Virus record (IMG/VR): IMGVR_UViG_3300017735_002163
Coordinates: 19,377 to 83,376 of that record
Origin: a virus
DNA length: 64,000 nt
Strand: one strand, 5' to 3'
The position numbers were made by a program, and so were the translations under genes. Below the pieces are notes generated by a model. It did no database searches. It saw only the letters and a list, made by a program, of their open reading frames with translations, and was not told where the DNA came from. Positions 27,457 to 46,500 of this stretch are shown in pieces. The number at the start of each line of letters is the position of its first letter. The first letter of the stretch is position 1.

Positions 27457-29514
27457 TTATTTACTTGTAGCAATAAATATTCCATCCCAATCTTTTGGAA
27501 GTGTTTGAGTCTTTTGAAATTCGCAACGCTCAATCCACATATCATAATAACCTTTCATCTTGCCATCAAAATGCGTCTCTAATAATTTACACAATTTAAT
27601 TGCTCTATCAAACTCTTGGTTTCTATAATGTGTATGCATTGCATTATGCATCTCTTTAGACTTAGCATGTTTATCTGCTTTATAATCAAGCACAGTGTAT
27701 ATTTCAATGCCTATTGTTTTACCTTTAACTGCCAAGTCATCAACTTTTAAATAAAAGAATTCGTTTTTAGTTTTGTGATATGTACTACCACCGACTAATA
27801 GTAAGCACCCGTATTCCTTACACTTAGACTCAATTCGTGCGGCAGTTGATACAGCATCTCCAAGTACATCATAACTATGTCTGCTTGTAGAGCCCATCTC
27901 ACCGAGATAACCAACGCCAGTGTTAATGCCAGCCCCCATACCAATTGGAGGTCTTCCTTCTGCTGTGATCTTATCATTAAATTTCTCCACTGCTCTCAGC
28001 ATATCCAAACCTGTTTGCACTGCTGAGTGTTCATGCTTTGCATCATCGTTTGGTGCATTGTGTATATGCATACTTGCATCACCTATGTACTTGATAATCA
28101 TACCGTCTGCATCAAGTACAGGTTGTGTGATAGCATCCATATAACCATTCATTAGTTTTGTGAGTCCTTGTACATCATCTCCAAAACTTTCACCTAATGG
28201 TGTGAAGCCACGCAAGTCTGAGAAGCATATTGATATCTCTCGCTTCATGCCTTCTTTGATCAATGCAGGATTTTCTTGTAACATACGCACAACTGTGGGT
28301 GAACAATATCCTGCAAATTGCTTTTCTATTTCTTGTCTTAATTTAAACTGTATCCAGAAGTTGTTAAAACTTGCCTGTGTAAATATTAAAAATGTTGCTA
28401 TTGCAGGATATGTAGCATCAAATAAAACTAAGTTTGCTGTATAAGAATGTATAGTATAATAAGCAATAGACCCTATAATGCTTATTATACTAAACAATCC
28501 TGCCCATACAGGCAACTTGTATATTGCTAAAGCAACTAATACCATGCTCAACAACGCACACACAAGCTCTGTAAGCGACGATAATTCTGATCTGGTAATG
28601 TTACTCCCATCTATAAAATTCTGTAGCATGTGTGCTTGTATATGCTGTGGATATATGTTGCCTATCGGAGTGGGCACCGGATTGGCAACACCTTCTGCAC
28701 TCACACCCACTATGACGAACTTGCCGCCCATATTCGGTAAACTGTCTGCACCAGTGTATTCTATTTCTTCGAATGTATTATTAAAACGTATGTATGCTGT
28801 TCCATCGCCTTGTGTTACTACAGGAACAAATGGTGGTATAGCAAATTCTTGTATTCCTATCTCACTTGTTTTAATCATGTAACTGGGTTGACCAGTTTGC
28901 ACTCTTAACATTTCAATTGCAAACGAAGGATATATTTTATCCGCTACTGTGATTGCAAGTGGGTATGTTCTTGTTTGATTATCTGGTTGTGGTGCTGATG
29001 CATTAATACCAATACCAGATGCTACTGTTTCCAACTCTGCTATATTTGTTACCAGATTTTTCCAAGTCAATAAGTGTTGCTGAGCCGGGCTCGGGCCTAT
29101 TGTACCAGTCCCTATATGCGGGCCGGAACTCCTCACCCCTTTGGAACTTGGGGTCTGGGATAAAACTATTCCGTTTCCTTTTATCCATGATGCAAAGACT
29201 TCGTCTCCTCCAAAACGATCTACTTCAGGGAACATTAATGTAAAACCTACTATCCCTTGATTTTTTTGTCTTATGTCGTATATCATTTGTGCATAAGACT
29301 GCCTGGGAAATGGATACTGGCCTAAAGCATCTAAACTTTTTTCACCGAGATTAATTATAACTACTTCGTTACTTTGTTTTGTTTCGTCAAGTTGTTGGTA
29401 ATAATCAAATGTCTGCGAACGCAAACTTTGTAGTGGTGTAGGATCTGATATTCTCAAACCAAGTAATAAGCATATTGTTACTGCTACTGCCCAGCCGCTG
29501 TATAACCATTTCAT
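27457..29514 (-). CDS. CHASE2-domain class III adenylate cyclase
   Basis: 685 aa: N-terminal membrane anchor (WLYSGWAVAVTICLLLGLRI), an extracytoplasmic CHASE2 sensor domain to about residue 300 (SLRSQTFDYYQQLDETKQ, PFPRQSYAQMIYDIR, GKFVIVGVSAEGVANPVPTP), two or three membrane helices at about 310-390, then the cyclase domain at about 425-610. ICFSDLRGFTPL and IIKYIGDASM give the two metal Asp residues. Lys in IIKYIGD and Asp in SYDVLGD predict ATP as substrate. The usual Asn of GDxVNxAxR is Ser here (GDAVSTAARIE), though the Arg is kept, so activity may be reduced. It probably senses the periplasm and makes cAMP; partner candidate is the FecR protein. Confidence 0.9.
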   Translation of the reverse strand: MKWLYSGWAVAVTICLLLGLRISDPTPLQSLRSQTFDYYQQLDETKQSNEVVIINLGEKSLDALGQYPFPRQSYAQMIYDIRQKNQGIVGFTLMFPEVDRFGGDEVFASWIKGNGIVLSQTPSSKGVRSSGPHIGTGTIGPSPAQQHLLTWKNLVTNIAELETVASGIGINASAPQPDNQTRTYPLAITVADKIYPSFAIEMLRVQTGQPSYMIKTSEIGIQEFAIPPFVPVVTQGDGTAYIRFNNTFEEIEYTGADSLPNMGGKFVIVGVSAEGVANPVPTPIGNIYPQHIQAHMLQNFIDGSNITRSELSSLTELVCALLSMVLVALAIYKLPVWAGLFSIISIIGSIAYYTIHSYTANLVLFDATYPAIATFLIFTQASFNNFWIQFKLRQEIEKQFAGYCSPTVVRMLQENPALIKEGMKREISICFSDLRGFTPLGESFGDDVQGLTKLMNGYMDAITQPVLDADGMIIKYIGDASMHIHNAPNDDAKHEHSAVQTGLDMLRAVEKFNDKITAEGRPPIGMGAGINTGVGYLGEMGSTSRHSYDVLGDAVSTAARIESKCKEYGCLLLVGGSTYHKTKNEFFYLKVDDLAVKGKTIGIEIYTVLDYKADKHAKSKEMHNAMHTHYRNQEFDRAIKLCKLLETHFDGKMKGYYDMWIERCEFQKTQTLPKDWDGIFIATSK

Positions 29515-29519
29515 AGTTA

Positions 29520-29527
29520 TATTTATC
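29520..29527 (-). promoter_or_regulatory. late box GATAAATA, 5 nt before ATG (leaderless type)
   Basis: GATAAATA-TAACT-ATG on the minus strand before the cyclase gene at 29514. The cyclase is therefore predicted to be made late in infection. Confidence 0.7.
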
Positions 29528-29534
29528 GTAAATA

Positions 29535-30251
29535 TCAGTCAGCAAATGCTCGTTCGAGCATGAAGTCGCCCATTTCGCCAGTGTTTCCTTCTTCCCAATT
29601 TAAATATGAAAAACGCTCTCTGCATTCTTTATTAAGTGAGGGAGAACCGCAAACCATAACAGCATCAGTTTCTTTGGTTAAAGGTGAACCGAGAACTGGT
29701 TCAATGTGATTCCAAAACCTGCCTTGCCTAAAATAGTTTTCTCTGGTTACAGAAGGAATGTATAAAAATGGCATCATACCTGATATATCTTCCATGCTGT
29801 CCTTGTATGTAAGTTCTGCTACTTCTCTTACAGTGTGGAACAAATAGACGTTGTCGAACCTATCGTATGTTGCAGGGTCTTTAGCAATGCTTACAAACGG
29901 TGCTATGCCTGTTCCTGTTGCTAACATTACTAAATTCTTTTTGGGTAATAAGTAATCACAAACTAAACTACCTGTAGTTTTTGGACCTACTAATATATCG
30001 TCACCTATTTTAATATTTTGCAATTTACTTGTGAGAGGGCCATCTTGAACTTTAATACTGAGGAACTCTAAGTGGTCATCATAATTAGTGCTTACAATAC
30101 TGTATGCTCTCATTATTTTTTTAGGTTCGAGCTCTAATCCTATCATAGCAAACTCTCCGTTTTTAAAACGGAAGGTTTTATCTCTTGTAGTTTTAAAAGA
30201 AAATAAGCGATCGCTGTAGTGTGTGATTTCAGTAACTTGCTCTTTATTCAT
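29535..30251 (-). CDS. ferredoxin/flavodoxin-NADP reductase
   Basis: 238 aa from the ATG at 30251; a longer frame from 30284 would read through the late box. It has the FAD motif RAYSIVS near residue 50, the NADP-binding GTGIAPF near 110, the CGSP motif (VMVCGSPSLNKECRERF) and the short C-terminal tail MLERAFAD of bacterial Fpr-type enzymes. It exchanges electrons between NADPH and ferredoxin or flavodoxin. No ferredoxin gene is visible in the window, so it would use a host partner. Possible uses are radical SAM and oxygenase chemistry or host redox control. Confidence 0.9.
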   Translation of the reverse strand: MNKEQVTEITHYSDRLFSFKTTRDKTFRFKNGEFAMIGLELEPKKIMRAYSIVSTNYDDHLEFLSIKVQDGPLTSKLQNIKIGDDILVGPKTTGSLVCDYLLPKKNLVMLATGTGIAPFVSIAKDPATYDRFDNVYLFHTVREVAELTYKDSMEDISGMMPFLYIPSVTRENYFRQGRFWNHIEPVLGSPLTKETDAVMVCGSPSLNKECRERFSYLNWEEGNTGEMGDFMLERAFAD

Positions 30252-30256
30252 GTAGA

Positions 30257-30264
30257 TATTTATT
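30257..30264 (-). promoter_or_regulatory. late box AATAAATA, 5 nt before ATG (leaderless type)
   Basis: AATAAATA-TCTAC-ATG on the minus strand. It fixes the FNR start at 30251. Confidence 0.7.
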
Positions 30265-30265
30265 A

Positions 30266-30784
30266 CTATCTGTTCTTGGAGCATTCTTTTCTGGCACGAC
30301 TCCAGACATGAAAATTGTTTGCCACAATAGCGGCCATAAAATAATTTGCACCAGCGAAATCCTCGTCTGTTAAAACAGTTCGTTTGGTACCGATAAACAT
30401 AGCCGGTATTATAACTACTGATTTTAAAAATACTATTTCATGTAACTCAGGCTTTTTATCCAGTAGCGGATTTGCTTCCTCAATACAATCATACTTTACT
30501 GCTTCAACTGTGTTGTATATATCTAACAACTGAAATGCTGTAAACATTGCCCAGGATAATGGCGAAGCAGGTTCTTTCAGTGGTGGTAGATCTAAAGTGA
30601 TGGCTGGCGGGTATTCGTATTCGAATGTTGCTTGTCGAACTTCCGCTAAAACTTCTTTGCTATAGCAACACCCATGGCCATTGTTTATAAAAAATATTTG
30701 CTCAGGAGAAAGATTTGCTGGGAGATCTGTTGCGTAACAGTTAAGAGAAAGTAGCGACAACATAATCATTGCCGCTAATTTCAT
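30266..30784 (-). CDS. secreted/membrane protein resembling DUF5658-type proteins, unknown
   Basis: 172 aa from the ATG at 30784, which has AAGGAG 8 nt upstream; a GTG further upstream is less likely. A signal peptide (KLAAMIMLSLLSLNCYA) is followed by a periplasmic part with a Cys pair (GHGCCYSKE) and a hydrophobic part with AFQLLDIYNTVEAVKYDC, EEANPLLDKKPELHEIVFLK and VVIIPAMFIG. The D..NT....EANPLL pattern recalls DUF5658-like membrane proteins, but the match is by eye. Its start codon overlaps the end of the -1 frame extension described at 30784-30903 (TAATG). Confidence 0.65.
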   Translation of the reverse strand: MKLAAMIMLSLLSLNCYATDLPANLSPEQIFFINNGHGCCYSKEVLAEVRQATFEYEYPPAITLDLPPLKEPASPLSWAMFTAFQLLDIYNTVEAVKYDCIEEANPLLDKKPELHEIVFLKSVVIIPAMFIGTKRTVLTDEDFAGANYFMAAIVANNFHVWSRARKECSKNR

Positions 30785-30903
30785 TATTCGCACTCCTTAG
30801 GATTACTCGAACAATAGTCTTTAATTTGTTTTATTAACATTTTAATATCATCCTCATTGTCCTGCTTATCTTTGCGATTAGATAACAGGCTTAATCCTTT
30901 TTT
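30784..30903 (-). CDS. candidate -1 frameshift extension of the lipoprotein gene
   Basis: Near its end the lipoprotein frame reads CCA AAA AAG, that is A AAA AAG, the classic -1 slippery heptamer (30903-30897). Slipping there opens 37 further codons ending at TAA 30786-30784: GLSLLSNRKDKQDNEDDIK.. to CSSNPKECE. The frame has no ATG, GTG or TTG before its middle and a TGA closes it just upstream of the slippery site. Its stop overlaps the next gene's ATG as TAATG and contains that gene's ribosome site, which is the normal geometry of translated neighbours. Alternatively only the last 18 codons (from an internal ATG) are translated, or the site is chance. Confidence 0.4.
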   Translation of the reverse strand, partial: KKGLSLLSNRKDKQDNEDDIKMLIKQIKDYCSSNPKECE

Positions 30904-31175
30904 GGTGCTTCTGGTTCTTTTTGTAGTTCGTCAGTTTGTTTGTCAACTTCGGTTGCGACAGTTTCTACAACACCTTGTGCAGTGTTAATAGTTACGTCTG
31001 CAATTGCTTTTGCATCGTTAGTTACTGCAACTGCCATTGTGGCGGCTCCGCCAACAACGCTGTCCACAGTACCTGTGACAATCTCTGTTCCTGCATTCCA
31101 GGCCCCTCCAACTGAGGCGCACCCTACAGTGCCTAAACAAAGTACCGCTACGAAGAACTTAATATGTGTATTCAT
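30891..31175 (-). CDS. small lipoprotein of the curli-linked block
   Basis: 94 aa from the ATG at 31175, which has GGAG 6 nt upstream; an upstream start at 31199 lacks a ribosome site. The signal FFVAVLCLGTVGC ends in a lipobox with Cys19 as lipidated residue. The mature part has alternating small residues (GTEIVTGTVDSVVGGAATMA, VTNDAKAIADVTINTAQGV) typical of short amphipathic outer-membrane lipoproteins, then a charged Glu/Lys tail. The end carries a slippery A-run. No family name is assigned. Confidence 0.7.
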   Translation of the reverse strand: MNTHIKFFVAVLCLGTVGCASVGGAWNAGTEIVTGTVDSVVGGAATMAVAVTNDAKAIADVTINTAQGVVETVATEVDKQTDELQKEPEAPKKD

Positions 31176-31221
31176 ATTATCTCCATGGTTAAATAGCATG
31201 CCAACTGCAATGCTACACTAT

Positions 31222-31229
31222 TATTTATC
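31222..31229 (-). promoter_or_regulatory. late box GATAAATA before the lipoprotein gene
   Basis: GATAAATA on the minus strand 47 nt before the ATG at 31175, in the gap after the 102-aa membrane gene; the leader contains a GGAG ribosome site. Confidence 0.6.
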
Positions 31230-31235
31230 TGAAAG

Positions 31236-31544
31236 TTAGATGCCGTGGCTGTTAAAAGGACGATCTCCTGCTAAACTGTGTTGATCGTGTAGGTGTAATT
31301 CGTAGGCCAAGATATCTTTGGTATTTTGGCAGTCGGTAGTGTGCAGTAGTTTTAATATTTCCATTCTGTTTGCTTCTTCTATTTGATGTACTACGTCACA
31401 CCACATATAAAATACTGCAAATATACTTGGCACAATGATAATATAAAATACTAACCATGGGAAAAAGAAAGTGATAATTAAAACGTGTACGCCTATGACT
31501 GATAGTGAATATATCTTGAGACTATTGAGCCATTTACTTAGCAT
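31236..31544 (-). CDS. small inner-membrane protein, unknown
   Basis: 102 aa. The N-terminal half is one or two membrane helices (SLSVIGVHVLIITFFFPWLV, FYIIIVPSIFAVFYMW); the C-terminal half is soluble and His-rich (ILAYELHLHDQHSLAGDRP). The start overlaps the preceding small gene by 11 nt, indicating coupling. No family is recognised. Neighbouring genes suggest an envelope role connected with the curli-like module or the cyclase. Confidence 0.6.
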   Translation of the reverse strand: MLSKWLNSLKIYSLSVIGVHVLIITFFFPWLVFYIIIVPSIFAVFYMWCDVVHQIEEANRMEILKLLHTTDCQNTKDILAYELHLHDQHSLAGDRPFNSHGI

Positions 31545-31708: not shown

Positions 31709-31737
31709 ATTATAGTTGATATTGTAGGACTTGTCAA
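31709..31737 (-). promoter_or_regulatory. consensus sigma70 promoter inside the curli block
   Basis: Minus strand TTGACA (31737-31732), 17-nt spacer, TATAAT (31714-31709), perfect in both hexamers. It lies right after the second curlin gene and drives the small membrane protein genes, and perhaps the lipoprotein, from host sigma70. Confidence 0.88.
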
Positions 31738-31743
31738 CCGGTT

Positions 31744-32631
31744 TTAATTGCTACCGTTTACTGTTACTGAACATCCTGCTGTGTTATAACATACACCTGT
31801 TATACTGTAACTGCCGGCCGATGATGTCATGTTTTGATCTAAGTCAAGTGTGTAAGCACCAGTACCGTATGTTAAATCAATTGCCGCTGTTGCGTTATTG
31901 CCACCACGTTGATTAACATCAACACTATGCCCGTCACCATCTAACACAATGTCTGCCCATTTAACACCACCGTTGCCTCGTTGATATAACACCACATCAT
32001 TGTAATCACCTGTTATCTCTATAAAGCCATCGTGTCCTGATTTGCCTAACTGCCTGTGGTCTACATCATTGTAGTCACCTGTTATAATGTTTGCCAAATG
32101 ATGAGGACCTGCGTTAGTACCGCCTGACGATCTGTTAGTATCTGTTTGGCTACTTGCTAAAGTATTGTTGGAGCCATCTATGGTCCAATATGCTTCGTGG
32201 CCGCCTTCTTCGTCTATGTCAAGATTGCCTGTTAAATGTTTACCTTGCCACACTTTGAGATCATTATTACTACCAGTTGCATCTACTTTTGCAAAGTTAT
32301 CGTTGCCGCCATTGCCTTGAAATAAATCAAACGTGTTGTTACTGCCATTTAAGTTACCTTCAAATAAATGACTGTAGCCTTGCTGATAAAATGTTAAGTT
32401 ATTAGACGCACCAAGTAATTGACTATTGATGTCTATGCCTTGGATTACATTGTCGTATCCATCTTGTGTTACCGTTAGAGTAAGATTGTCACCTGCTTGG
32501 TCAATGAGAATAATGTTGTCTGCATTTGCTGTCATAGGCATTAATAAAAACATGCCCAGTATAATATATCCCAATACTAAAAGAGGGGTATCTTTTGGTT
32601 TCATTTCGTTTAGTTTTTTATCTATGTTCAT
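31744..32631 (-). CDS. curlin-repeat (CsgA/CsgB-like) secreted protein
   Basis: 295 aa. After an N-terminal hydrophobic signal (LLVLGYIILGMFLLMPMTANA) come seven or more imperfect repeats of the curlin type, with the Q-x-G(-x)-N signature: LTVTQDGYDN, NLTFYQQGYSH, FDLFQGNGGND, LKVWQGKH, VVLYQRGNGG, VDVNQRGGNN. Spacing is about 22-45 residues, somewhat irregular compared with E. coli CsgA. Such repeats form amyloid fibre strands. The C-terminus has two cysteines (GVCYNTAGCSV), unusual for curlins. It belongs to the same transcript as the CsgG and CsgF genes and is the likely secreted substrate. Confidence 0.8.
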   Translation of the reverse strand: MNIDKKLNEMKPKDTPLLVLGYIILGMFLLMPMTANADNIILIDQAGDNLTLTVTQDGYDNVIQGIDINSQLLGASNNLTFYQQGYSHLFEGNLNGSNNTFDLFQGNGGNDNFAKVDATGSNNDLKVWQGKHLTGNLDIDEEGGHEAYWTIDGSNNTLASSQTDTNRSSGGTNAGPHHLANIITGDYNDVDHRQLGKSGHDGFIEITGDYNDVVLYQRGNGGVKWADIVLDGDGHSVDVNQRGGNNATAAIDLTYGTGAYTLDLDQNMTSSAGSYSITGVCYNTAGCSVTVNGSN

Positions 32632-32632
32632 A

Positions 32633-33820
32633 TTAACCTTGTGTTTGTCTTATGTATATATTTATACCTGAACAATCATTTACACATATAACGTTAGTTC
32701 TATTCTCTATGTCTGTTTCAAGTCTTGCATTACTGCCAACTGGCACTTTAACACTGATAGTACCATTAACTTCTCTGTAGAACCATATAAATCCAGAACG
32801 ATCTATTATGGTATTAAATTGTGTTTTTGGATCAAACCCTGATGCTAATGTACCTGTTATTATATCAACGCCTTGTTGTCCTTCTGTTTTTTCTGACAAC
32901 ACTGCAAGTTTATCTGCTTCGTCTAATATTTCTAATAAATCCTGTAAAAAATCAACACCTAATATGTCAACATCTAATTCACTGAATTCTAAGTCTATGC
33001 TATCTTCATTTTGATCGTCGAGCAAATTTTCTTCTAAGAAATCTATATCGAGATCACTGAATGCTAAGTAGTCAATGCCCTTTCTTGCTTCTATTTGTTG
33101 TTCTTCTGCTTCTGTGATTTCTGCTGGTTCACTTACAATAAACATGTTGTCTATCATATTTAAATTTAAATCTTGTATAACCACTGGCTGAGTTGGCGGT
33201 GTTTCAAACGTGCTTACCATTACTGCTTGATAGGCTTCTTCTAATACAACTGTTCCGCCATCATTAGTAACTGTGATAGCACCGGACGGTCTACACCCTT
33301 CTTCTAATTTTACCTTGTCTGTGCAATTTGCATCTGGCAATAGTATAACTAAACTCCTGCCTAATTCATCTACTGTGGTTGTAAAATCTGTTCCACGCAC
33401 ACCAATTGTTGCTGTGGGAGTTTGTATGGCTATGTTTTCTTTTGGTACAAGTCCTAATCCGCCTGTGGCAAATCTTGCTGTGCCTGACACAAAATTCATT
33501 GCCATTTTACTTTTGCTTGGATCGGGGTCGTAGACATACTCATTGATTACTATCAACGTATTTTCTGTCAGACTGACCTGTGTTTTATCTACGAATTCAA
33601 TTTTAAGTCTACCTGCTGTAGTTTCTACATTGTCCATACTAACAATTGTAGAATCTAAAACTGCAGACAGTTTTTCACCAGATGTTCGTTCTATACTACC
33701 CGGATTTCCAGTCTGCTCAAATACGCCGCCTATCCTTTCAGCGGCGCTTGAGTTAGACAAAAACGAAAACAGTACAACAAAACTAATCTTTCTGAGTAAT
33801 GCTAACTGTTGCGTTTTCAC
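32633..33820 (-). CDS. FecR-domain secreted protein
   Basis: 395 aa from a GTG at 33820 that overlaps the upstream curlin gene by 38 nt. A signal peptide (ISFVVLFSFLSNSSAAE) is followed by a FecR domain at about residues 35-200: GSIERTSGEKL, AGRLKIEFVDKTQVSLTENT, SGTARFATGGLG and IQTPTATIGVRGTDFTTTVD. The region after 210 is acidic (EENLLDDQNEDSIDLEFSE). FecR-type periplasmic proteins often occur beside CHASE2 cyclases or surface-fibre genes in bacteria. It could be a periplasmic sensor or scaffold linking curlin secretion with the cyclase, but there is no direct proof. Confidence 0.82.
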   Translation of the reverse strand: MKTQQLALLRKISFVVLFSFLSNSSAAERIGGVFEQTGNPGSIERTSGEKLSAVLDSTIVSMDNVETTAGRLKIEFVDKTQVSLTENTLIVINEYVYDPDPSKSKMAMNFVSGTARFATGGLGLVPKENIAIQTPTATIGVRGTDFTTTVDELGRSLVILLPDANCTDKVKLEEGCRPSGAITVTNDGGTVVLEEAYQAVMVSTFETPPTQPVVIQDLNLNMIDNMFIVSEPAEITEAEEQQIEARKGIDYLAFSDLDIDFLEENLLDDQNEDSIDLEFSELDVDILGVDFLQDLLEILDEADKLAVLSEKTEGQQGVDIITGTLASGFDPKTQFNTIIDRSGFIWFYREVNGTISVKVPVGSNARLETDIENRTNVICVNDCSGINIYIRQTQG

Positions 33821-34505
33821 TGTCTATATCTAAATCCATATGACCGTAGCATGAAGTTGCACCAGTGGCACATGTACCGGAACTTTGAATTAAATCAATG
33901 TCTCCGCCTGAACCGTCGTATACTACTTTCATGTACTGATCTGCACCATCAGTTTGGCTGGTTACAATATCGTTATTATCACCAGTTAGGTCAAAATTCC
34001 AAGTTGCATCATCGACTTCAATGTCAATGTCCCATACGTTGCTGTCACCTAAGATTGCTAAGTCGAAATCTAATCTTTCTGCACTTGCGGCTGATCCTAA
34101 GTCAAAGTCAAACGTATTTGAATCACCTTGAATTGTAGCGAGTATATTGCCTGTATCGGCTGAACCTGTGTCACCAACTTTGATGTCCCAGATATTACTG
34201 CTACCAGTAAAAGTCCAATCGTATGTACTGCTGTCTGCAGTTATACTACCAAAAAACTCATTACTGTTACCTATTTGGTCTAAATCGATATTCAATGATG
34301 AACCAACTATAGTTAGATCACTACTTTGATCTGTATCGCCGGCTATCTTGTTACCAAAACCTTGTTGTAAAATAGTTAAATTCAGTGTGTCACCAACTTG
34401 ATCAATTAAGATTTCATTATCAGTTGCACCTGCTGAATAAACTGCTCCACTAAAGGTCATTAACCCTACTACCAAACTTAATGCTGATAAAGTTTTATTC
34501 AACAT
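33783..34505 (-). CDS. curlin-repeat (CsgA/CsgB-like) secreted protein
   Basis: 240 aa with a standard signal peptide (LSALSLVVGLMTFSGAVYSA). The mature part begins with a motif nearly shared with the second curlin protein (NEILIDQVGDTLNLTILQQG versus DNIILIDQAGDNLTLTVTQD). It then carries repeats such as LNIDLDQIGNSN, GDSNTFDFDLG, GDSNVWDIDIE and GDNNDIVTSQTDG. The protein is very acidic. Two cysteines (GTCATGATSC) lie near the end. The start overlaps csgG by 11 nt, so secretion pore and substrate are co-translated. It could be the nucleator or a second fibre subunit. Confidence 0.8.
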   Translation of the reverse strand: MLNKTLSALSLVVGLMTFSGAVYSAGATDNEILIDQVGDTLNLTILQQGFGNKIAGDTDQSSDLTIVGSSLNIDLDQIGNSNEFFGSITADSSTYDWTFTGSSNIWDIKVGDTGSADTGNILATIQGDSNTFDFDLGSAASAERLDFDLAILGDSNVWDIDIEVDDATWNFDLTGDNNDIVTSQTDGADQYMKVVYDGSGGDIDLIQSSGTCATGATSCYGHMDLDIDSENATVSITQKD

Positions 34506-35412
34506 TTGTTTCTCCTATGTTTAAATTTTCTACAGGTGGGAGACTTTCAGCATCATTGCTGGTAATCGTCCAGTAACCTCTATCGTCACCTTGTTCGATG
34601 AGTGCAAGTACTGCCGCTTCCGTGGCGCTCCTTACTGCCCATGTCACACTTTCGTTAGAAGTAATTCCTGTTTCTAATTCTAATAATTTTGTATCCATGT
34701 CAAGAAAACGAAATACATCTCCTCCCATGCCTACACTAAGTATTGTCTTGTATGTCTGTACGTTAAGTATAACTTCGCCTGTTAAAGTACTAACAGCACG
34801 TAGACTAACAATAATGCTGTCTCGTCTGTATTGAGCACTTCCGCCGATACCTAAATATCTGGCTCCGTTACCTCCTGTTTCTATGTTACTATCGTACCCA
34901 ACTATACCGCCTTCAAGTAAAATACCCGCAAACAACATTGGTTGTAGTTTTTGGCTCTCTTTACCTGCTTTGGCATAATCGTCTCTGGTACTGCGGATAA
35001 TTTGTCTTTCTCTGACCAGGTTATCCAGACCTACTCCTCTTTCAACAACACGGAACCAAGTACCGTTTGCAGTCTCACCTGCGCCTGCCGCCTTAAGAGC
35101 ATCAATTAACAATGCTTTTGCACCCTGCGTTACTGCTGTGCTGAACAATGCTATATTGTCTTTTTGTTTTCTTTGACCTGTTAAGTCAGAGAACTGATAT
35201 ACTGCAACCACAGGCATTACTTCTGCAGGTGGTAACTGTCTTAATCTTTCATATGTTGGTAATTCGACTTGTTTTGGTTCTTCGACACACTCCATTACAT
35301 TGTCGTAACACCACTCGCCTGTTAATGCATTATTAGGCAATGACATTGATGCACACCCCGACATTATCGTGCTAAAAAGTAGTGTAGCAATTAGCGAACT
35401 ATAACTTTTCAT
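34495..35412 (-). CDS. csgG: CsgG, curli secretion channel lipoprotein
   Basis: 305 aa. A lipoprotein signal ends in MSGC with Cys20. The CsgG fold is unmistakable: VVAVYQFSDLTGQRK, ALFSTAVTQGAKALLIDALK, RVVERGVGLDNLVRERQIIR, GILLEGGIVGYDSN, GGNGARYLGIGGSAQYRRDS, VSTLTGEVILNVQTYKTIL, VFRFLDMDTKLLELETGI and ALIEQGDDRGYW. It forms the nonameric outer-membrane pore of type VIII secretion. Compared with E. coli, the constriction segment differs: Phe56 is kept in ALFSTAV, but Tyr51 and Asn55 are replaced and there is one extra residue. Confidence 0.95.
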   Translation of the reverse strand: MKSYSSLIATLLFSTIMSGCASMSLPNNALTGEWCYDNVMECVEEPKQVELPTYERLRQLPPAEVMPVVAVYQFSDLTGQRKQKDNIALFSTAVTQGAKALLIDALKAAGAGETANGTWFRVVERGVGLDNLVRERQIIRSTRDDYAKAGKESQKLQPMLFAGILLEGGIVGYDSNIETGGNGARYLGIGGSAQYRRDSIIVSLRAVSTLTGEVILNVQTYKTILSVGMGGDVFRFLDMDTKLLELETGITSNESVTWAVRSATEAAVLALIEQGDDRGYWTITSNDAESLPPVENLNIGETNVE

Positions 35413-35418
35413 ATTGTC

Positions 35419-35961
35419 TTATCCGCCGCCGATGGCAACTCCTACAGGTATATCTATTGTAGTCATTGTTCCGTCTGAGCTTACAATGGTTAGCCTAATT
35501 ATTTCTATGCCGTCATCTCCAACCATTCTTTCGTATGTGACTGTATTTCCTTCGATAGTGAACACACCATAGTCTGCTCCGTCTTCGTTACCGAACATAC
35601 TGTCTACTAACTGTCTACTAATTTGACTGTAAATTCTACTTTCTAAATTTCTCAAAAATTTATTAAGTGTTGAATTTTCTTCTTCACGCTGAATTCTTAA
35701 TAGCTCAGCGTCTATTTGATCTTTAATTTTGTCTTTACGACTTTTTTGTTGATTCTCAATGGTTAGGTAATGGGCGCCTGTTCCTACACCACTGAAACTT
35801 GGATTTTTAAATTTATGTACTAATTCGTCTGCTAATGCTAACGGACTCATGAATAATAGTCCTAACATTATACCGAATGCAAATGCTTTGAATAAATCAC
35901 TACCAGACCATATACGTGGTCCTACTTGCGATTTAAGTAACTCCCAATCTTTATCTCTCAT
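35419..35961 (-). CDS. csgF: CsgF-like curli assembly factor
   Basis: 180 aa from the ATG at 35961, which has AGAGGT upstream. A long N-region leads to the signal FAFGIMLGLLFMSPLALA. The mature start ELVHKFKNPSFSGVGTGAH matches E. coli CsgF (F-x-N-P-x-F), the segment that inserts into the CsgG constriction. LESRIYSQISRQLVDSMFG and FTIEGNTVTYERMVGDDGIE correspond to the C-terminal helix and strands. CsgF in E. coli exposes the nucleator at the cell surface. An extra charged insert (KSRKDKIKDQIDAELLRIQR) has no counterpart in E. coli. It is 6 nt upstream of csgG. Confidence 0.85.
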   Translation of the reverse strand: MRDKDWELLKSQVGPRIWSGSDLFKAFAFGIMLGLLFMSPLALADELVHKFKNPSFSGVGTGAHYLTIENQQKSRKDKIKDQIDAELLRIQREEENSTLNKFLRNLESRIYSQISRQLVDSMFGNEDGADYGVFTIEGNTVTYERMVGDDGIEIIRLTIVSSDGTMTTIDIPVGVAIGGG

Positions 35962-36268
35962 CTGTCTGTACCTCTGACTGTAGTGTGGCAAGAGCCTCTT
36001 TTTGCTTGGCTTCTTTTATTACCTTCTGTCTTTCTTTGTATTCTAAAACTACATTTACTTTTTGCTGTAGTCGTATCATATCCTGATCAAGCATTCGTGT
36101 TTGATCAATTACACGTATTAATGCCATATGCATTGTTTCTAATTCGGGGTCTATTTTCTCACCTATAAACCACCAAACATAATATATAAAATATCCTAAT
36201 CCTACACAAAGTACTATTGGAAAGCCAAATGTGTTAATTGCTTCAGCAATTCCATTCACATCTTCCAT
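35951..36268 (-). CDS. small membrane protein with coiled coil, holin-like
   Basis: 105 aa: one N-terminal membrane helix (FPIVLCVGLGYFIYYVWWFIG), then a coiled coil (MALIRVIDQTRMLDQDMIRL) and a charged Lys/Glu tail. The start is coupled to the preceding gene by TAATG with GGAGAG upstream; the end overlaps the CsgF start by 11 nt. Size and topology suit a class III-type holin or spanin-related protein, but also a membrane partner of the curli module. The phage lysozyme needs a holin and no other candidate is seen in this window. Confidence 0.6.
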   Translation of the reverse strand: MEDVNGIAEAINTFGFPIVLCVGLGYFIYYVWWFIGEKIDPELETMHMALIRVIDQTRMLDQDMIRLQQKVNVVLEYKERQKVIKEAKQKEALATLQSEVQTDER

Positions 36269-36564
36269 TAGTCTCTCCTTGCATCAATTTTGTTATCTTC
36301 TACAAAATTTTCTGCTCGTGCTACTCTGTCGATGTCAGGGCTTAGTTCAAGAGCACTACTTACAAGCAAGTCAATTTTCATCATCTCATTGCTCATTGTT
36401 CTGGCTCGATTTTCTAAACTATTACAAAATATAGTTAGAGTTTTTATTTGCCCTACTATGCCTTCAAGTATTTGTTTGATAACAAGGAATATGAAAAAAC
36501 CCATTACCATACTGCCGGCAATTGGTGCTCCAACTTCTGCTATTAATCCAAAAATTTCATTCAT
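36268..36564 (-). CDS. small membrane protein, holin-like
   Basis: 98 aa: an N-terminal membrane helix (APIAGSMVMGFFIFLVIKQIL), then an amphipathic coiled coil (LENRARTMSNEMMKIDLLVS) and a charged end. It has the same architecture as the next gene, with which it is translationally coupled, so the two may be paralogues working as a pair. It is the first gene after the late box at 36672-36679. Function is inferred from topology only. Confidence 0.6.
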   Translation of the reverse strand: MNEIFGLIAEVGAPIAGSMVMGFFIFLVIKQILEGIVGQIKTLTIFCNSLENRARTMSNEMMKIDLLVSSALELSPDIDRVARAENFVEDNKIDARRD

Positions 36565-36757: not shown

Positions 36758-39700
36758 TTATTGTAAGTTGATTAATGCTTCAACAACACCGTTACCATCT
36801 TCGTTTTCGCTAATTGCTTTACCGATGATTGTACCTGACTTAACGTTTTCTGGGTCAGCGCCTTTGGCTCTACCTGGAATACCTGATGTTACAAGTAAGT
36901 CACCTTTGCCAATTGGACCAACAACTTTAACTGGTACCCTTCCGCATAATGCTACTGGAGTTCCACCTGCTAATTCACTGTTCATCAAGTATGCTGGGTC
37001 TGTGGAAACAACACCTGCTACACGGTAATCTTCATCACCTGCACATTCTGTTATTTCTGCATCGCCACCAAACACAACAACTGTACCTGCATCATACACT
37101 GCATCTGCTGAATAGTTCTCAGCCAAATCCGCATATCTTGCCGTTGTTGCTGTTGCACTAACTACGCCAGCACTAAAGTTACCGGAACCGTCTCTGGCAA
37201 CCACTGTACTTGCTGTATTGGCTGATGTTGCGTTAACATTTAATGTAGCACTACCACTTGATGCGCCACCTGTTAAGTATGAACCTGCCACAACTGCTGT
37301 AATATCACCTACGTTGCCTGTTAGTCCACTTATGCGTCCTGTTACGTGATCGTATACGTCATTACCTGTTGGTATTGATGTGCCGCCGTTTGCAACTGCA
37401 CCAGTAGAAACACTTAATGTAACACTACCACTTGAACCGCCGCCACTTAAATGTGTACCTGCTGTAACACCAGTGATGTCACCAACGTTACTTGTCCAAC
37501 CGGAGTCATTGTTAAACTGACTTAGTTTAAATTCACCAATTGCTTTCTTTCTCTCAGCGCCTGAATCAAGTAAAATAAGTTCGTCATTAGCACCGCTAAC
37601 ATCTGCTGTCATATCAGTAAGTTCTGATAAGTCTAAAGTGATGCTTGGTGTACCTGAAGTACCTCCGCCGTCTAAACCTGTACCTACTGTAATACCTGTT
37701 AAGTAACCAGTGTCTGTTAAACTAATAACACCTGTTGAGCTGTTATATGTAACACCAGTTCCACCACTAACTAATCCTCTAACATGTGAATCGCTTAGTG
37801 CTAAACTAACACTACCACTTGATCCACCGCCAGTTAAACCGTTACCAGCACTTACGTTTGTTATATCACCAACTGTTGTTGAGTAACCGTATGCTTCAAT
37901 CTTATCAGCAACTGCTTTTGCTGTCATTAACACTGTGTCTGAATCACTAAATGCTTCTGAACTTAATTGTATTGCCGCTCCAGCAAAGTCACCAACTGTT
38001 AAATCTGGTAGTCTTGCACTTGCAATAGTACCTGATGCTATTTGACTTGCACCAATTGATATTGAAACTTCGCCACTTGCAGTTAAACGTCCTTTTGCAT
38101 CAACTGTAAATGTTGATACTGTGCCAGCGTCACCAAATGATCCAACTGATGCGGCTGTATCTGCTAATGCTAAACTAACACTACCACTTGAACCACCACC
38201 TGTTAAACCTGAGCCTGCACTTACGTTTGTTATATCACCAACTGTTGTTGAGTAACCATAACTTAGAATTTTATCTTGTACTGCCGCCGATGTCATTAAT
38301 GTTGTATCGTTATCTGCAAAACTTTCTGTGCTTAACTGAATTGTTGCTCCTGCAAATTCACTAATTGTTAAACCACTTACGTTTAATGTTGCTGTACCAC
38401 TTGTAGCACCGCCACTTAAACCAGTTCCTGCTACTACACCAGTAATAAAGTTTGGATCTGTTAGACTGATTACACCACTTGATAAAGTAATACCAGCACC
38501 ACCACTAAAGTGATTTCTAACTTGTGCCGCACTTGGACCTGTGTAACTAATAACACCTGTTGTGCTGTTGTATGCTAATGCACCATCACCACCGTTATCT
38601 GTTACAGAGATAGCACCTCTGGCGTCTGCGTCTGCATACATTGTAGGCTCACTATAACTTATAACACCTGTTGTGCTGTTATATGCTAAGTCACCACTTG
38701 CACTAATTGCCGCTCTTGCTCTTGCAGTTGTATGGTATTGATTAGTACCTTCTGATAAATTACTTGTGCTGTGATTAGCAATACTGCTAACTGTACCAGT
38801 TACATCACCAGTTACATCACCAGTTACATCACCAGTTACATTACCAACTACTGCGCCTCTAAATGTTGTAGCAACAAAATCTGTTGATACTGCCCATCTG
38901 TCGTTTGACTCGTCCCATAGTAACTGTACATTTGTAGCATCACCACGTTCAATTTCAATACCTGCATTGGCTGTAGGGGAACCTGATGCATTGTTGTTTA
39001 GAACGATGATGTTGTCATCAACTGTTAAAGTTTCTGTATTAACAGTAGTTTGTGTACCGTTAATTGTTAAGTTACCATTAACTATAATGTTGTCACTAAA
39101 TGTTTTAGCACCTGCTACTGTTTGAGTACCACTTGTTCTAACTACAGTATTATCTACTGAGAATGAACCGGAACTAACATCTAAGCCGTCACCTGCTGAT
39201 ACATGTGCTCTAACTTGCGCCGCACTTGGACCTGTGTAAGTAATTACACCAGTTGAGCTGTTATAAGCAAGACTTCCGTCTCCGCCTGCGTCAGTAACAC
39301 TAATTGCACTTCTGGCATCTGCATCTGCATACATAGTTGGGGTTGTATAAGACATAACACCTGTTGTGCTGTTATATGCTAAGTTGCCACCTGCACTAAT
39401 TGAAGCTCTTGCTAATGCATCAGTATACTGAGTGATAGTTGTTGCAATAGCACCGTCTGTTACAGTAATACCTGTACCAGCACTAATATGAGCTCTTACT
39501 TCTGAAGCACTTGGGCCTGTGTAAGTAATAACACCTGATGTGCTGTTGTATGCCAATGATCCGTCACCACCTGCATCTGTTACACTAATTAATCCTTTTG
39601 CATAGCTCTCATCAAGTGATATTTCGTCTGCATCAACAGTAATACCGTTGCCTTCACCAATGTTTAATGTAACTGCACCTGCTGTGCCGCCACCTGTTAA

Positions 39701-41041
39701 ACCTGATCCTGCGCCTACGCTTTCAATGTCACCTGCGTCATTAGTAAAACTAAATACACCAGTTGAGCTATCGTATGCTAAATCGCCACTTGCACTAAAG
39801 TGTGCTCTTGTCTCTGCCGCACTTGGTCCTGTGTAAGTAATTACACCAGTTGAACTATTGTATGCCGCACTACCATCACCACCTGCATCTGTTACACTAA
39901 TAAGTGCTCTTGCAGTTGAATCTGTAAGCATGTTTTGATAAGTTGTACCATCGTTTGTAAATGCCCATGAACCTTCTGACTCGTCCCATTTTAGGAATAC
40001 GTCTGCACTTGAGGCTCTGTCTACTTGGAAACCTGTGTCTAATGCACTACCAGTTCCAGCATTTAATAAAATAATTTCATCTGCAATTTCTAATGCACTA
40101 CCTGAACTTGTTAGTGTACCAGTAATTTCCATATTACCTGAGAATGTTTTGTTACCTGCTAACGTTTGGTTACCAGTTGTTCTCATTACAGTACTGTCAA
40201 CAGCAATTGTACCAGTACTAATATCAATACCTGATCCACCGTTAAAGTGAGCTCTTACCTCTGCGGCACTTGGACCTGTGTAAGTAATTACACCATTGTC
40301 TAATGCTAATGAGCCATCGCCGCCTGCATCAGTAACACTTAAGAAAGTTAATGCATCTACATAACCTTTGCTTGCCGCATCACCATCTGCTACTGGAGTA
40401 GAGATATTGTTAATATGGTTGCTGTCTAAATTAACATTTGAACCAAACTTAACACCACCTGCTGAAGTAATTGATTTGTTTGCTGTTAAAACAACATCTG
40501 TTTTCAGTTGGATGTCACCACCTGATGTTAATTCAATATCACCTGTTCCTGTTGAAACAATGCTAATATTTTGGTTGGCGTCTGCACTAAACTGAATAGT
40601 ACCTGAGTTATCAGATAATACTTGTTGTCCGTTAACGTATAAAGATCCCGGACCAACGTATATGTCTCGCCATTGTTTTGTTTCAGAACCTAAGTCGTAT
40701 GTAACGTCTGCATTAGGTATAATGTGTCCTGAGAACGCACCTCCACCTAAGAAACTTTGTACACCGCTTGTAAAAGTTGCTGAAGAAGTATCAAGTGCAA
40801 TAGTGGCCGATCCTGCGTCTGCTCCACCACTTAAACCTGAGCCTGCTACAACGGCAGTAATATCACCTGTTGCCGCCGCTACTACTTCTGAATTTTTTGC
40901 AAGTCTGTGACCACCTGCTGTTGTACCATCATGTACTATGACGGTATTGTTAGTTGTATCGATCGTAATCTCACCCGCTAATCCGGTAAAACTACCGTGT
41001 TGCGTCGAGGTACCTCGTCTTCTTTGAATTGCTGTTGCCAT
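36758..41041 (-). CDS. long tail fibre-type protein
   Basis: 1427 aa. The N-terminus AIQRRRGTSTQHGSFTGLAG, then GEITIDTTNNTVIVHDGTTA, is the head domain common in marine phage fibres. The middle is a long array of about 50-70 residue beta repeats of the type DAGGDGSLAYNSTTGVITY, TGPSAAEVRAH and GDITNVSAGSGLTGGGSSGS. The C-terminal 110 residues (from about 1310) form a conserved domain, ATTARYADLAENYSAD, STDPAYLMN, GRVPVKVVGPIGKGDLLVTS, shared with the 1605-aa protein and probably a trimerisation or chaperone domain. It has a late box and a GGGGAAAG ribosome site. It probably recognises the host. Confidence 0.85.
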   Translation of the reverse strand: MATAIQRRRGTSTQHGSFTGLAGEITIDTTNNTVIVHDGTTAGGHRLAKNSEVVAAATGDITAVVAGSGLSGGADAGSATIALDTSSATFTSGVQSFLGGGAFSGHIIPNADVTYDLGSETKQWRDIYVGPGSLYVNGQQVLSDNSGTIQFSADANQNISIVSTGTGDIELTSGGDIQLKTDVVLTANKSITSAGGVKFGSNVNLDSNHINNISTPVADGDAASKGYVDALTFLSVTDAGGDGSLALDNGVITYTGPSAAEVRAHFNGGSGIDISTGTIAVDSTVMRTTGNQTLAGNKTFSGNMEITGTLTSSGSALEIADEIILLNAGTGSALDTGFQVDRASSADVFLKWDESEGSWAFTNDGTTYQNMLTDSTARALISVTDAGGDGSAAYNSSTGVITYTGPSAAETRAHFSASGDLAYDSSTGVFSFTNDAGDIESVGAGSGLTGGGTAGAVTLNIGEGNGITVDADEISLDESYAKGLISVTDAGGDGSLAYNSTSGVITYTGPSASEVRAHISAGTGITVTDGAIATTITQYTDALARASISAGGNLAYNSTTGVMSYTTPTMYADADARSAISVTDAGGDGSLAYNSSTGVITYTGPSAAQVRAHVSAGDGLDVSSGSFSVDNTVVRTSGTQTVAGAKTFSDNIIVNGNLTINGTQTTVNTETLTVDDNIIVLNNNASGSPTANAGIEIERGDATNVQLLWDESNDRWAVSTDFVATTFRGAVVGNVTGDVTGDVTGDVTGTVSSIANHSTSNLSEGTNQYHTTARARAAISASGDLAYNSTTGVISYSEPTMYADADARGAISVTDNGGDGALAYNSTTGVISYTGPSAAQVRNHFSGGAGITLSSGVISLTDPNFITGVVAGTGLSGGATSGTATLNVSGLTISEFAGATIQLSTESFADNDTTLMTSAAVQDKILSYGYSTTVGDITNVSAGSGLTGGGSSGSVSLALADTAASVGSFGDAGTVSTFTVDAKGRLTASGEVSISIGASQIASGTIASARLPDLTVGDFAGAAIQLSSEAFSDSDTVLMTAKAVADKIEAYGYSTTVGDITNVSAGNGLTGGGSSGSVSLALSDSHVRGLVSGGTGVTYNSSTGVISLTDTGYLTGITVGTGLDGGGTSGTPSITLDLSELTDMTADVSGANDELILLDSGAERKKAIGEFKLSQFNNDSGWTSNVGDITGVTAGTHLSGGGSSGSVTLSVSTGAVANGGTSIPTGNDVYDHVTGRISGLTGNVGDITAVVAGSYLTGGASSGSATLNVNATSANTASTVVARDGSGNFSAGVVSATATTARYADLAENYSADAVYDAGTVVVFGGDAEITECAGDEDYRVAGVVSTDPAYLMNSELAGGTPVALCGRVPVKVVGPIGKGDLLVTSGIPGRAKGADPENVKSGTIIGKAISENEDGNGVVEALINLQ

Positions 41042-43556: not shown

Positions 43557-46500
43557 TTAAACTAAAACTTCAATAATGCCTGGAGCGGCTTCTGTTTTTG
43601 TTTCTAAAGCAATTCCAATGATTTGTAGAGAACTTAAAGAATGTGCCATTGCGCCTACCATTGCATGTCCTGGTAGATCACTTGTAATTAATACATCACC
43701 TTTGTTTACGTTGCCAACAACTTTACATGGCACTCTACCACGTAATGCTACTGCTACACCTTGTGATTCGGCATTCATTAAATATGCTGGGTCTGTGGAA
43801 ACAACACCGGCAACTCTATAACTGCCTGGATTGTCTGTTACTGTTACTTCTGCTTCGCCACCTACTATAACAACTGTGCCTGGATCATAACTGGCATCTG
43901 CTGTGTACATTTCTGCCAAATCCGCATAACGTGCCGCTGTTGCTGTTGCTGTAATAACACCTGCACTAAAGTTACCGCTTCCATCTCTGGCTACAATTTT
44001 ATTTGCTGTATTGGCTGATGTGGCTTGAACGTCTATATCGTCTGCATTAACAGTTATATAATCACCTGCGCCAACTGTTAAAGTAACTGCACCTGATGTG
44101 CCTCCGCCTGATAAACCGGCACCGGCAGTTACACTTGTGATATCACCAACGTTACTTGTCCAACCACCATAGTTACCAAGGTCGTTATTAAAGTCACTTA
44201 GTGTAATTTCACCAATTAGTTTTCTTCTTTCTGCGCCATTGTCAAGTAGGATAAGTTCATCTTGTGTACCAACAACTGCCGCTGTCATATCAGTAAGTTC
44301 TGATAAATCTAAAGTAATACTTGGAGTTGTAGTTGCATTACTTACATCTAAACCTGTGCCAACACTTACACTTGTTACTGTGCCTACTGTGTCGGAGTCT
44401 GTGAAACTGAATACACCAGTTGAGCTGTTATATGAAATGTCGCCACTTGCACTAAACAATCCTTTAATATAAGTATCGTCTGTTGTTATCTCGTCTGCCG
44501 CTACAGATATACCATTTCCGCCTGCAACATTAAGTGTTCTTGTTGTGGTTATATCACCACCGCCTGTTAAACCGGCGCCTGCTGTAATGCTTACCGAACT
44601 GTGATCAACGTGTTCATTTGCTACAAAGCCACTTAAACTATCATGTACAATTTGACTGTCGTTTGTGCTGATAGCACCTGATAATTGATTAAACGAAATA
44701 CCAGTTCCTGAACTTAGGTCGCCTCTGGTGTCACTTGCACTTGGACCTGTGTAAGTAATTACACCAGTTGAGCTGTTATAAGCAAGGCTTCCATGGCCGC
44801 CTGTATCACTAACACTGATTAAACCTCGCACTTCTGCATCTGTTCTTTCAGTTGGAGTAGTGTAACTTATAACACCTGTTGTGCTGTTATATGCTAAGTC
44901 ACCACTTGCACTAATTGCCGCTCTGGCTCTTGTGTTTGTAAACCATAAATTAATAGGTGAACCGTCTTCGTCTATATCGTCTGTGCTTAAAGTTATTGCA
45001 CCAGTCTCACCATTAACACTGGTTACTGGAGCAGTTGCGGCTGAGAAACTGATAACACCTGTTGAGCTGTTATAAGAGATATCGCCACTTGCACTAAGTA
45101 AGGCACGTACTTCAGCATCTGTTCTTTCTGTTGGGGTAGTGTAACTTATAACACCAGTAGTATTGTTGTATGCTAAGTCGCCACCTGCACTTATTAATGT
45201 TCTAATATGAGCATCATCTGTGCCAATGCTATCAGCCGCTACACTTATACCTGTGCCAGCGCCTATATTTAATGTTACCTGTCCTGAGTTGCCGCCACCT
45301 GTTAAACCTGAGCCTGCCGCAACACCTGTGATGTCAGCAGGGTTATCGTTTGAAATAGTAACTGTGTCGCCGGAGTTAGTAACAGTTATATTTGTGCCAC
45401 CTGTTAATATTAACGAATCTCCGCTTGTGATAGGAGCCGATGCTCCTGGACCTGATTCTGTTTGCACTGACCAACTTGAATAGTTATCTGCTGTGGTTGT
45501 TATTACACCAGTTGAGCTGTTATAACTTACTAATCCACTTGCACTGATTGAACCTCTGATGTAGGACTGGTCTGCATTTAATGTTACTGCACCTGATGTA
45601 CCACCTCCAGTTAAACCTGTTCCTGCTGTGACACTTTCTATGTCACCTGCGTCATTGGTAAAACTGAATGTACCTGTTGTGCTGTTATAACTTAAATCTC
45701 CACTTGCACTAAAGGCGCCTCTGATTGCACTGATGTCTGCATCAATTGAAACTGTGTTAGTGTCAGATGTAATAGTTGTATATGTTCCGTCGTTAATGCC
45801 TTTGATACCGTGGTATAAATTACCACCACTTGATCTTTGACCTGAATACAGTTCGTGTGTGCTTGAACCTGTTATACCAGGATTAGCATAAGTTTGACCT
45901 GAACTGGATTCTTCTACATATCCAACACTGCCTGCTGGAGTAATTTGTTTCTTAGTACCATTGACATATACCCATGCCTCATTGGAGTCTGTGAATATTG
46001 CTCCTGCATCTGTTACGTCAGTGGTTGGTAAAATTAATTTACCTGTGAATGTTTTAGTACCTGCTAAACTTTGATCACCTGTTGTTCTTATAACTGTGCT
46101 GTCAACTTCGATGTCATTTGCATTTGCTGTAATACCATCTCCGCCAATAACATTTAATGTTCTACTTGTGGTTATATCACCGCCACCAGTTAAACCAGTA
46201 CCTGCTGTGATATCTACTGCTGAATGGTCCACGTGTTCATTTGCTACAAAACCATCTAAACTGTCATGTTGTATTTCACTTTCTACAGCCTGGAATGCTC
46301 CTGTTGAACTATTGTAGTCAACGCCATTACTTGCACTAAAATGTGCTCTAACATTACTTGCTGAATCGTCTATCCTTGCTTGTACTTCTGCAAGGCTTGG
46401 TCCTGTATAAGTAAATACACCTGATGTACTGTTGTAAGCAAGACTTCCGTCGCCACCACTATCTGTAACACTAAAGTGTGTTCTTGTTTCTGCGGCACTT

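What the first reader, a model, noticed from the sequence alone, without database searches (positions are those of the whole stretch)
27457..29514. Phage-encoded CHASE2 sensor adenylate cyclase
The protein has an extracytoplasmic CHASE2 domain, membrane helices and a class III cyclase domain with ATP-type specificity residues (Lys in IIKYIGD, Asp in SYDVLGD). A full-length transmembrane sensor cyclase is unusual in a lytic phage. It has its own late box. The transition-state Asn is replaced by Ser (GDAVSTAARIE), so it could be weakened or could need a partner. It may raise host cAMP late in infection or read the state of the periplasm.
Basis: partly seen in the sequence, partly recalled or inferred. 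Interest (0 to 1): 0.78.

Follow-up and report, generated by a model that had tools for sequence, protein, structure and literature searches.

The report
Phage curli-linked sensor cyclase, domain-shuffled
A marine giant-phage genome carries a membrane-spanning sensor enzyme predicted to make cyclic AMP; it belongs to a virus-borne curli secretion module already described in other ocean phages, but its sensor and enzyme halves turn out to be swapped freely between phages, and its enzyme half carries a residue pair found in none of the bacterial relatives examined.

Summary
The gene is real: a 685-aa CHASE2 plus class III nucleotide cyclase, with its own conserved late promoter. It is not an isolated oddity. 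It ends a csgF-csgG-curlin-FecR-curlin-cyclase module; every related viral locus with enough flank (51 of 51) has FecR and CsgG within about 10 kb. The module, cyclase included, was published for pelagiphages in 2022 (PMC9599517), without mention of CHASE2 or jumbo phages. New here: (1) the virus belongs to a marine jumbo lineage nearest PA5oct; (2) the gene is a mosaic: one CHASE2 type is fused to two very different catalytic domains, and one catalytic domain to very different CHASE2 types, breakpoint about residue 396; (3) the noted Asn-to-Ser change is fixed with a Thr/Ser-to-Asp change in one phage clade (89 viral, 0 of 107 bacterial homologs), metal Asp, Lys and Arg are invariant, and dN/dS is 0.05, so decay is unlikely; (4) CHASE2 covaries with the FecR domain, not with CsgG, the adjacent curlin or its own catalytic domain. 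Best reading: FecR reports curli/periplasm state to CHASE2, which switches late cNMP (probably cAMP) synthesis. Activity, product, signal and receptor are untested.

The parts
27457..29514 (-). CHASE2 class III cyclase gene, 685 aa
   Evidence: full-length phrog_35576 match E 2.9e-149
29520..29527 (-). late promoter box GATAAATA ending 5 nt before the ATG; no Shine-Dalgarno, so the late mRNA is probably leaderless
28588..29445 (-). periplasmic CHASE2 sensor domain (aa 24-309)
   Evidence: Pfam; model
28330..28587 (-). three transmembrane helices (aa 310-395)
   Evidence: AlphaFold2 secondary structure
28315..28329 (-). recombination junction between sensor and catalytic cassettes (aa 396-400, at KQFAGY)
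27685..28254 (-). class III catalytic domain (aa 421-610): Asp433, Asp479 (metals), Lys475 and Asp549 (base), Ser556 (Asn position), Arg560
27460..27684 (-). C-terminal helical tail ending in DWDGIFIATSK, exchanged together with the catalytic domain
29535..31544 (-). variable insert between curlin 2 and the cyclase: ferredoxin-NADP reductase-like (29535-30284), DUF5658-like (30266-30793), small lipoprotein-like (30891-31199), small membrane protein (31236-31544)
   Evidence: present in only some related loci
31744..32631 (-). curlin-repeat protein 2
   Evidence: Pfam PF07012 E 3.3e-7
32633..33820 (-). FecR-domain protein with N-terminal signal peptide; proposed partner of CHASE2
   Evidence: Pfam PF04773 E 6.2e-12; covariation
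33783..34505 (-). curlin-repeat protein 1 (weak Pfam match)
   Evidence: same gene order as Melnitz
34495..35412 (-). CsgG outer-membrane curli pore
   Evidence: Pfam PF03783 E 3.4e-47
35419..35991 (-). CsgF (true start may lie further in)
   Evidence: Pfam PF10614 E 8.1e-16
35951..36564 (-). two small proteins (105 and 98 aa), each apparently one membrane helix plus a charged helical part, in the place where pelagiphages are said to have 'HK' genes
   Evidence: no histidine-kinase match in Pfam, PADLOC or NCBIfam

Best explanation
The protein is a working inner-membrane sensor cyclase that forms the signalling arm of a phage-borne curli secretion module. Shown: architecture, late promoter box, module linkage, domain shuffling, catalytic conservation and purifying selection. 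Inferred: late in infection the phage makes the CsgG/CsgF pore and curlin-repeat proteins; the exported FecR-domain protein stands between the pore and the inner membrane (C-terminal part tied to CsgG, FecR domain tied to CHASE2) and reports secretion or envelope state to CHASE2; the homodimeric cyclase then makes a cyclic nucleotide, most likely cAMP, that acts on a host receptor of the Crp type, since no cNMP-binding protein was found in the phages. Which catalytic cassette sits under a sensor seems interchangeable, so the output is probably the same for both; the sensor follows its FecR partner.
For: Every viral locus with at least 9 kb upstream (51 of 51) has FecR and CsgG within about 10 kb, 44 of them with both upstream on the same strand within 9 kb. 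Catalytic residues Asp433, Asp479, Lys475, Arg560 are invariant in 227 homologs. Catalytic domain dN/dS median 0.049, the lowest of the four regions measured. CHASE2-FecR partial rank correlation 0.51-0.59, against about 0 or below for CHASE2-CsgG, CHASE2-curlin 2 and CHASE2-catalytic domain; the FecR domain tracks CHASE2 (0.57) and the FecR C-terminus does not (-0.07). In bacteria the immediate neighbours of homologs include FecR (9), cNMP-binding (9) and class II cAMP phosphodiesterase (9) genes among 124 scanned. No cNMP_binding domain in 10 phage records, with 10 of 14 control genomes positive. Literature: S. meliloti CHASE2 cyclases raise cAMP in response to a signal perceived through an outer-membrane beta-barrel protein (PMC13001267), the same outer-to-inner-membrane logic.
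Against: No activity, product or signal has been measured. The Asn that stabilises the transition state is Ser. Pairwise covariation counts are not independent, and co-inheritance of neighbouring genes could cause part of it, although the curlin gene between FecR and the cyclase does not show it (its repeats align poorly, which weakens that control). The host of this phage is unknown, so the receptor is unknown. Most of the phage records searched for receptors may be incomplete.
Confidence: 0.55

Rival explanations
1. The Asp/Ser catalytic clade makes a different product (cGMP, cCMP or cUMP); the paired change at the base-contact residue and at the Asn position marks a switch of substrate.
For: The two changes always occur together (89 Asp+Ser, 0 Asp+Asn, 0 Thr/Ser+Ser among 150 viral sequences) and occur in none of 107 bacterial homologs. 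Cross-matches to Pycsar PycC profiles recall that the superfamily also includes pyrimidine cyclases.
Against: Lys475 with Asp549 is the standard adenine pair of class IIIa cyclases (general knowledge). The same sensors use Asp/Ser and Thr/Asn cassettes interchangeably, which is hard to explain if the outputs differ. The pairing rests on one origin, since the clade is monophyletic.
Confidence: 0.15
2. The catalytic domain is inactive or nearly so; it serves as a nucleotide-binding regulator or scaffold of the curli module.
For: Asn replaced by Ser in the transition-state position.
Against: Both metal Asp, Lys, Asp and Arg kept and dN/dS 0.05; repeated acquisition of whole catalytic domains.
Confidence: 0.15
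3. The cyclase signals host takeover or lysis timing independently of curli; its place in the module is hitchhiking.
For: In the window lineage it has its own late promoter box and variable genes separate it from FecR.
Against: Linkage to FecR and CsgG in all 51 testable loci, across jumbo and T4-like viruses and even where gene orientation differs; CHASE2-FecR covariation.
Confidence: 0.15

Closest known systems
Pelagiphage T8SS (curli) module with adenylate cyclase and FecR (Wittmers et al. 2022, PMC9599517)
   Same: CsgF, CsgG, curlin repeat, FecR, second curlin repeat, cyclase in the same order
   Different: Here in a marine jumbo phage of the PA5oct kind; the paper's main text does not mention CHASE2 or jumbo phages, and I found in its passages no report of domain shuffling, of the Asp/Ser residue pair or of FecR-CHASE2 pairing; no recognisable histidine kinase here
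Methylophilales phage Melnitz gp104 and Pelagibacter phage HTVC008M gp019
   Same: Homologs annotated adenylate/guanylate cyclase, 51% and 33% identical
   Different: Melnitz shares the catalytic domain (86%) but not the sensor (31%); HTVC008M has a Ser/Asn-type catalytic domain
Bacterial CHASE2 adenylate cyclases (for example CyaD1, CyaD2, CyaK of Sinorhizobium meliloti)
   Same: Domain order, class III residues, FecR genes next to some of the sampled relatives
   Different: All 107 sampled bacterial relatives have Thr/Ser plus Asn, never Asp plus Ser; none of the bacterial loci examined has csgG nearby. The S. meliloti proteins themselves were not aligned here
Pseudomonas aeruginosa CyaB catalytic domain (PDB 3r5g)
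   Same: Closest solved structure of the cyclase part, about 30% identical
   Different: Asn and a Thr base-contact residue in CyaB

Membership tests
Class III nucleotidyl cyclase | Guanylate_cyc fold | tested here: met
   Pfam E 1.4e-16; Foldseek TM-score 0.89 by target to 3r5g
Class III nucleotidyl cyclase | Two metal-binding Asp | tested here: met
   Asp433 and Asp479 invariant in 227 homologs
Class III nucleotidyl cyclase | Lys plus Asp/Thr/Ser base-contact pair of adenylate cyclases | tested here: met
   Lys475, Asp549
Class III nucleotidyl cyclase | Transition-state Asn and Arg | tested here: not met
   Arg560 kept, Asn replaced by Ser556 throughout the clade; homology to the family is not in doubt, canonical catalysis is
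Class III nucleotidyl cyclase | ATP turnover | not testable with these tools
   needs assay
CHASE2 sensor | CHASE2 profile and flanking TM helices | tested here: met
   Pfam E 2.1e-32; model
Phage T8SS module (PMC9599517) | CsgF, CsgG, curlin repeats, FecR, cyclase in order | tested here: met
Phage T8SS module (PMC9599517) | Upstream histidine kinase gene(s) | tested here: inconclusive
   Two small ORFs in that place, no kinase profile match; not compared with the published 'HK' sequences
Pycsar (PycC) | PycC-type cyclase with adjacent PycTM or PycTIR effector | tested here: not met
   Only partial cross-matches over the shared catalytic domain; neighbours are curli/FecR genes

The most novel reading that the evidence does not exclude
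Marine phages maintain a shared pool of interchangeable cyclase cassettes under a FecR-paired envelope sensor, and the Asp/Ser cassette is a phage-only catalytic variant with its own kinetics or product, giving phages a virus-specific cyclic-nucleotide signal that couples an amyloid pore in the outer membrane to host control.
Probability: 0.2. Interest if true: 0.85.

Novelty: new variant of a known kind. Interest (0 to 1): 0.55.

Why it matters
Phages are best known for destroying the cyclic-nucleotide signals of defence systems; a widespread virus-borne transmembrane sensor that makes one, tied to an amyloid secretion pore, would be signalling run by the virus. The covariation result gives a concrete, testable partner (FecR) for CHASE2 sensors, whose ligands are mostly unknown, and it offers an alternative to the published reading of this FecR as an iron-related regulator.

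Tried and rejected
Host contamination: rejected, the gene sits among phage structural genes and recurs in viral contigs. Pelagimyophage origin: rejected, terminase and tail sheath are nearest PA5oct-like jumbo phages. Degenerate enzyme: not supported by dN/dS. Pycsar cyclase: only cross-matches. Phage-encoded cAMP receptor: none found. Riboswitch upstream, as reported for the Melnitz tmRNA: Rfam found only three tRNAs in the window. Bacterial Asp+Ser cyclases: a profile made from the phage clade, run on 289 genomes of the class of Thalassospira, gave 30 best loci, all Ser/Thr plus Asn. Same-sensor breakpoints by protein change-point scatter (median 331) because the TM region itself diverges; the reciprocal comparison is tight (median 396, 5-95% 386-398) and the DNA profiles break near nt 1200. 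The AU test on the 98-row tree did not finish; a 41-row set did.

Full report
Observation. The ORF at 27457-29514 (-) encodes 685 aa with a CHASE2 domain and a class III cyclase domain, both far above Pfam cut-offs. The AlphaFold2 model is confident (mean pLDDT 86.5) and shows one N-terminal helix, an alpha/beta sensor domain, three long helices and a cyclase fold whose nearest solved relative is P. aeruginosa CyaB.

Context. The gene lies at the end of a same-strand row: two small membrane proteins, csgF, csgG, curlin-repeat 1, FecR, curlin-repeat 2, four accessory genes, cyclase. The isolates Melnitz and HTVC008M have the same order without the four accessory genes. Wittmers et al. 2022 (PMC9599517) described this module with FecR and adenylate cyclase in pelagiphage podoviruses and myoviruses, found transcripts of curli components and FecR in ocean metatranscriptomes, and inferred an alphaproteobacterial origin. 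Earlier papers on pelagimyophages and Melnitz discuss the curli genes without the cyclase (PMC7029224, PMC9004378). So the presence of the gene is already known in kind. The 2022 paper does not mention CHASE2.

The virus. The terminase of the window is 57% identical to that of PA5oct-like Pseudomonas jumbo phages, and the tail sheath 51%; the terminases of Melnitz and HTVC008M are only 34% identical. Sister contigs of 217, 250, 340 and 349 kb carry a related terminase (59-71%) and the cyclase. The module is therefore shared by jumbo and T4-like marine phages.

Linkage. Among 152 viral loci, 51 have at least 9 kb upstream of the cyclase; all 51 have FecR and CsgG within about 10 kb, 44 with both upstream on the same strand within 9 kb. 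In four loci the curli genes lie on the other strand next to the cyclase, so the pairing survives rearrangement. Of 46 bacterial loci with as much flank, none has CsgG, which agrees with the published statement that bacterial curli operons lack the cyclase. But bacterial relatives have their own FecR neighbours (9 of 124 flanking genes), plus cNMP-binding proteins (9) and class II cAMP phosphodiesterases (9). FecR thus goes with the cyclase even where there is no curli.

Mosaic structure. Window-type CHASE2 domains (65-80% identical to the window) occur on two catalytic domains: one 84-99% identical to the window's, one only about 43%. Conversely the Melnitz sensor is 31% identical to the window's while its catalytic domain is 86% identical. 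The catalytic tree has the Asp/Ser clade as one group with full support; on the CHASE2 tree the same label needs 12 changes, at least 11 forced by strongly supported branches, and a tree that holds it together is rejected (AU p 2.9e-53 on 41 sequences). DNA profiles drop sharply near nt 1200: L004 against L049 goes from 70-100% in the sensor to about 50% in the catalytic part, and in L209 against L179 similarity returns downstream of the gene. Pairs with the same catalytic domain but different sensors put the junction at residue 396 (5-95%: 386-398), right after the last membrane helix.

The Asn-to-Ser change. Among 150 viral sequences 89 have Asp+Ser, 54 Thr+Asn, 7 Ser+Asn; 77 bacterial ones have Thr+Asn or Ser+Asn only, and so do the 30 best bacterial loci of a profile made from the Asp/Ser clade. 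These counts include near-copies; 50 Asp/Ser representatives remain under 88% identity and they form a single clade, so this is one evolutionary origin, not repeated coupling. The catalytic domain of this clade has median dN/dS 0.049 within the jumbo lineage, lower than CHASE2 (0.108), the membrane part (0.200) and the tail (0.140). A decaying enzyme is therefore unlikely. Reduced or altered catalysis is not excluded.

Who the sensor listens to. Across 65 viral loci, pairwise identity of CHASE2 correlates with FecR (rho 0.60), less with CsgG (0.39), and hardly with its own catalytic domain (0.05). In partial correlations only FecR remains (0.51; CsgG -0.02). With curlin 2, which lies between FecR and the cyclase, added as a linkage control (45 loci), CHASE2-FecR is 0.59 and CHASE2-curlin 2 is -0.12. 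Within FecR, the FecR domain tracks CHASE2 (0.57) and the C-terminal part does not (-0.07), while the C-terminal part tracks CsgG (0.39). The simplest reading is that the FecR domain touches CHASE2 and the rest of FecR has to do with the pore. Pairs of sequences are not independent, so I treat these numbers as a lead, not as proof.

Timing. The box GATAAATA ends 5 nt before the ATG in the window, and a box lies at gap 4-7 in 79 of 80 window-type loci with different upstream DNA. Across the window and two sister jumbo contigs, boxes are strongly concentrated at gap 5, absent between 8 and 15, and then scattered from 16 on; none of the 21 genes with a box at gap 5-6 has a Shine-Dalgarno-like motif, against 109 of 245 others. 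By the geometry of T4-type late promoters (general knowledge) the transcript would begin at about the start codon, so these late mRNAs are probably leaderless.

Mechanism and limits. Shown: architecture, module, promoter box, mosaicism, conservation. Inferred: activity, ATP as substrate, FecR as input, host Crp-type receptor (no cNMP_binding domain in 10 phage records). Not known: host, signal, phenotype.

Verdict. An established kind of phage gene in a virus lineage where I found no earlier report of it, with new and testable features: sensor/catalytic cassette exchange, a catalytic residue pair seen only in phages so far, and a candidate partner for CHASE2.

Noticed in passing
window 6629, 8337, 9253, 22309, 23197, 29520 (-); L263, L265, L266, L268, L270, L273: Late box (N)ATAAATA sits 5-6 nt before the ATG in many genes of this jumbo lineage, none with a Shine-Dalgarno-like motif (0 of 21, against 109 of 245 other genes); further boxes lie 16 nt or more upstream. 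Suggests a class of leaderless late mRNAs.
   Followed up: partly
window 29535-31544: Accessory genes between curlin 2 and the cyclase (ferredoxin-NADP reductase-like, DUF5658-like, lipoprotein-like, small membrane protein), each found in only some related loci.
   Followed up: partly
L087 2040-4088: A cyclase of the phage Asp/Ser clade, with FecR upstream, in a contig binned as a Pirellulales MAG; probably a viral contig misbinned in the reference genome set.
   Followed up: no
window 35951-36564: The two small ORFs in the place of the published 'histidine kinase' match no kinase profile; the published label may not fit them.
   Followed up: partly
window 36758-41041, 43557-48374: Very large proteins (1427 and 1605 aa) next to the curli module; the first starts with an Mtd_N domain (major tropism determinant) and has BppL_N stretches, so it is probably a tail fibre. 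No reverse transcriptase was looked for.
   Followed up: no
window 31709-31737 (-): A perfect TTGACA-17-TATAAT site lies between curlin 2 (31744-32631) and the accessory genes, on the module's strand.
   Followed up: no
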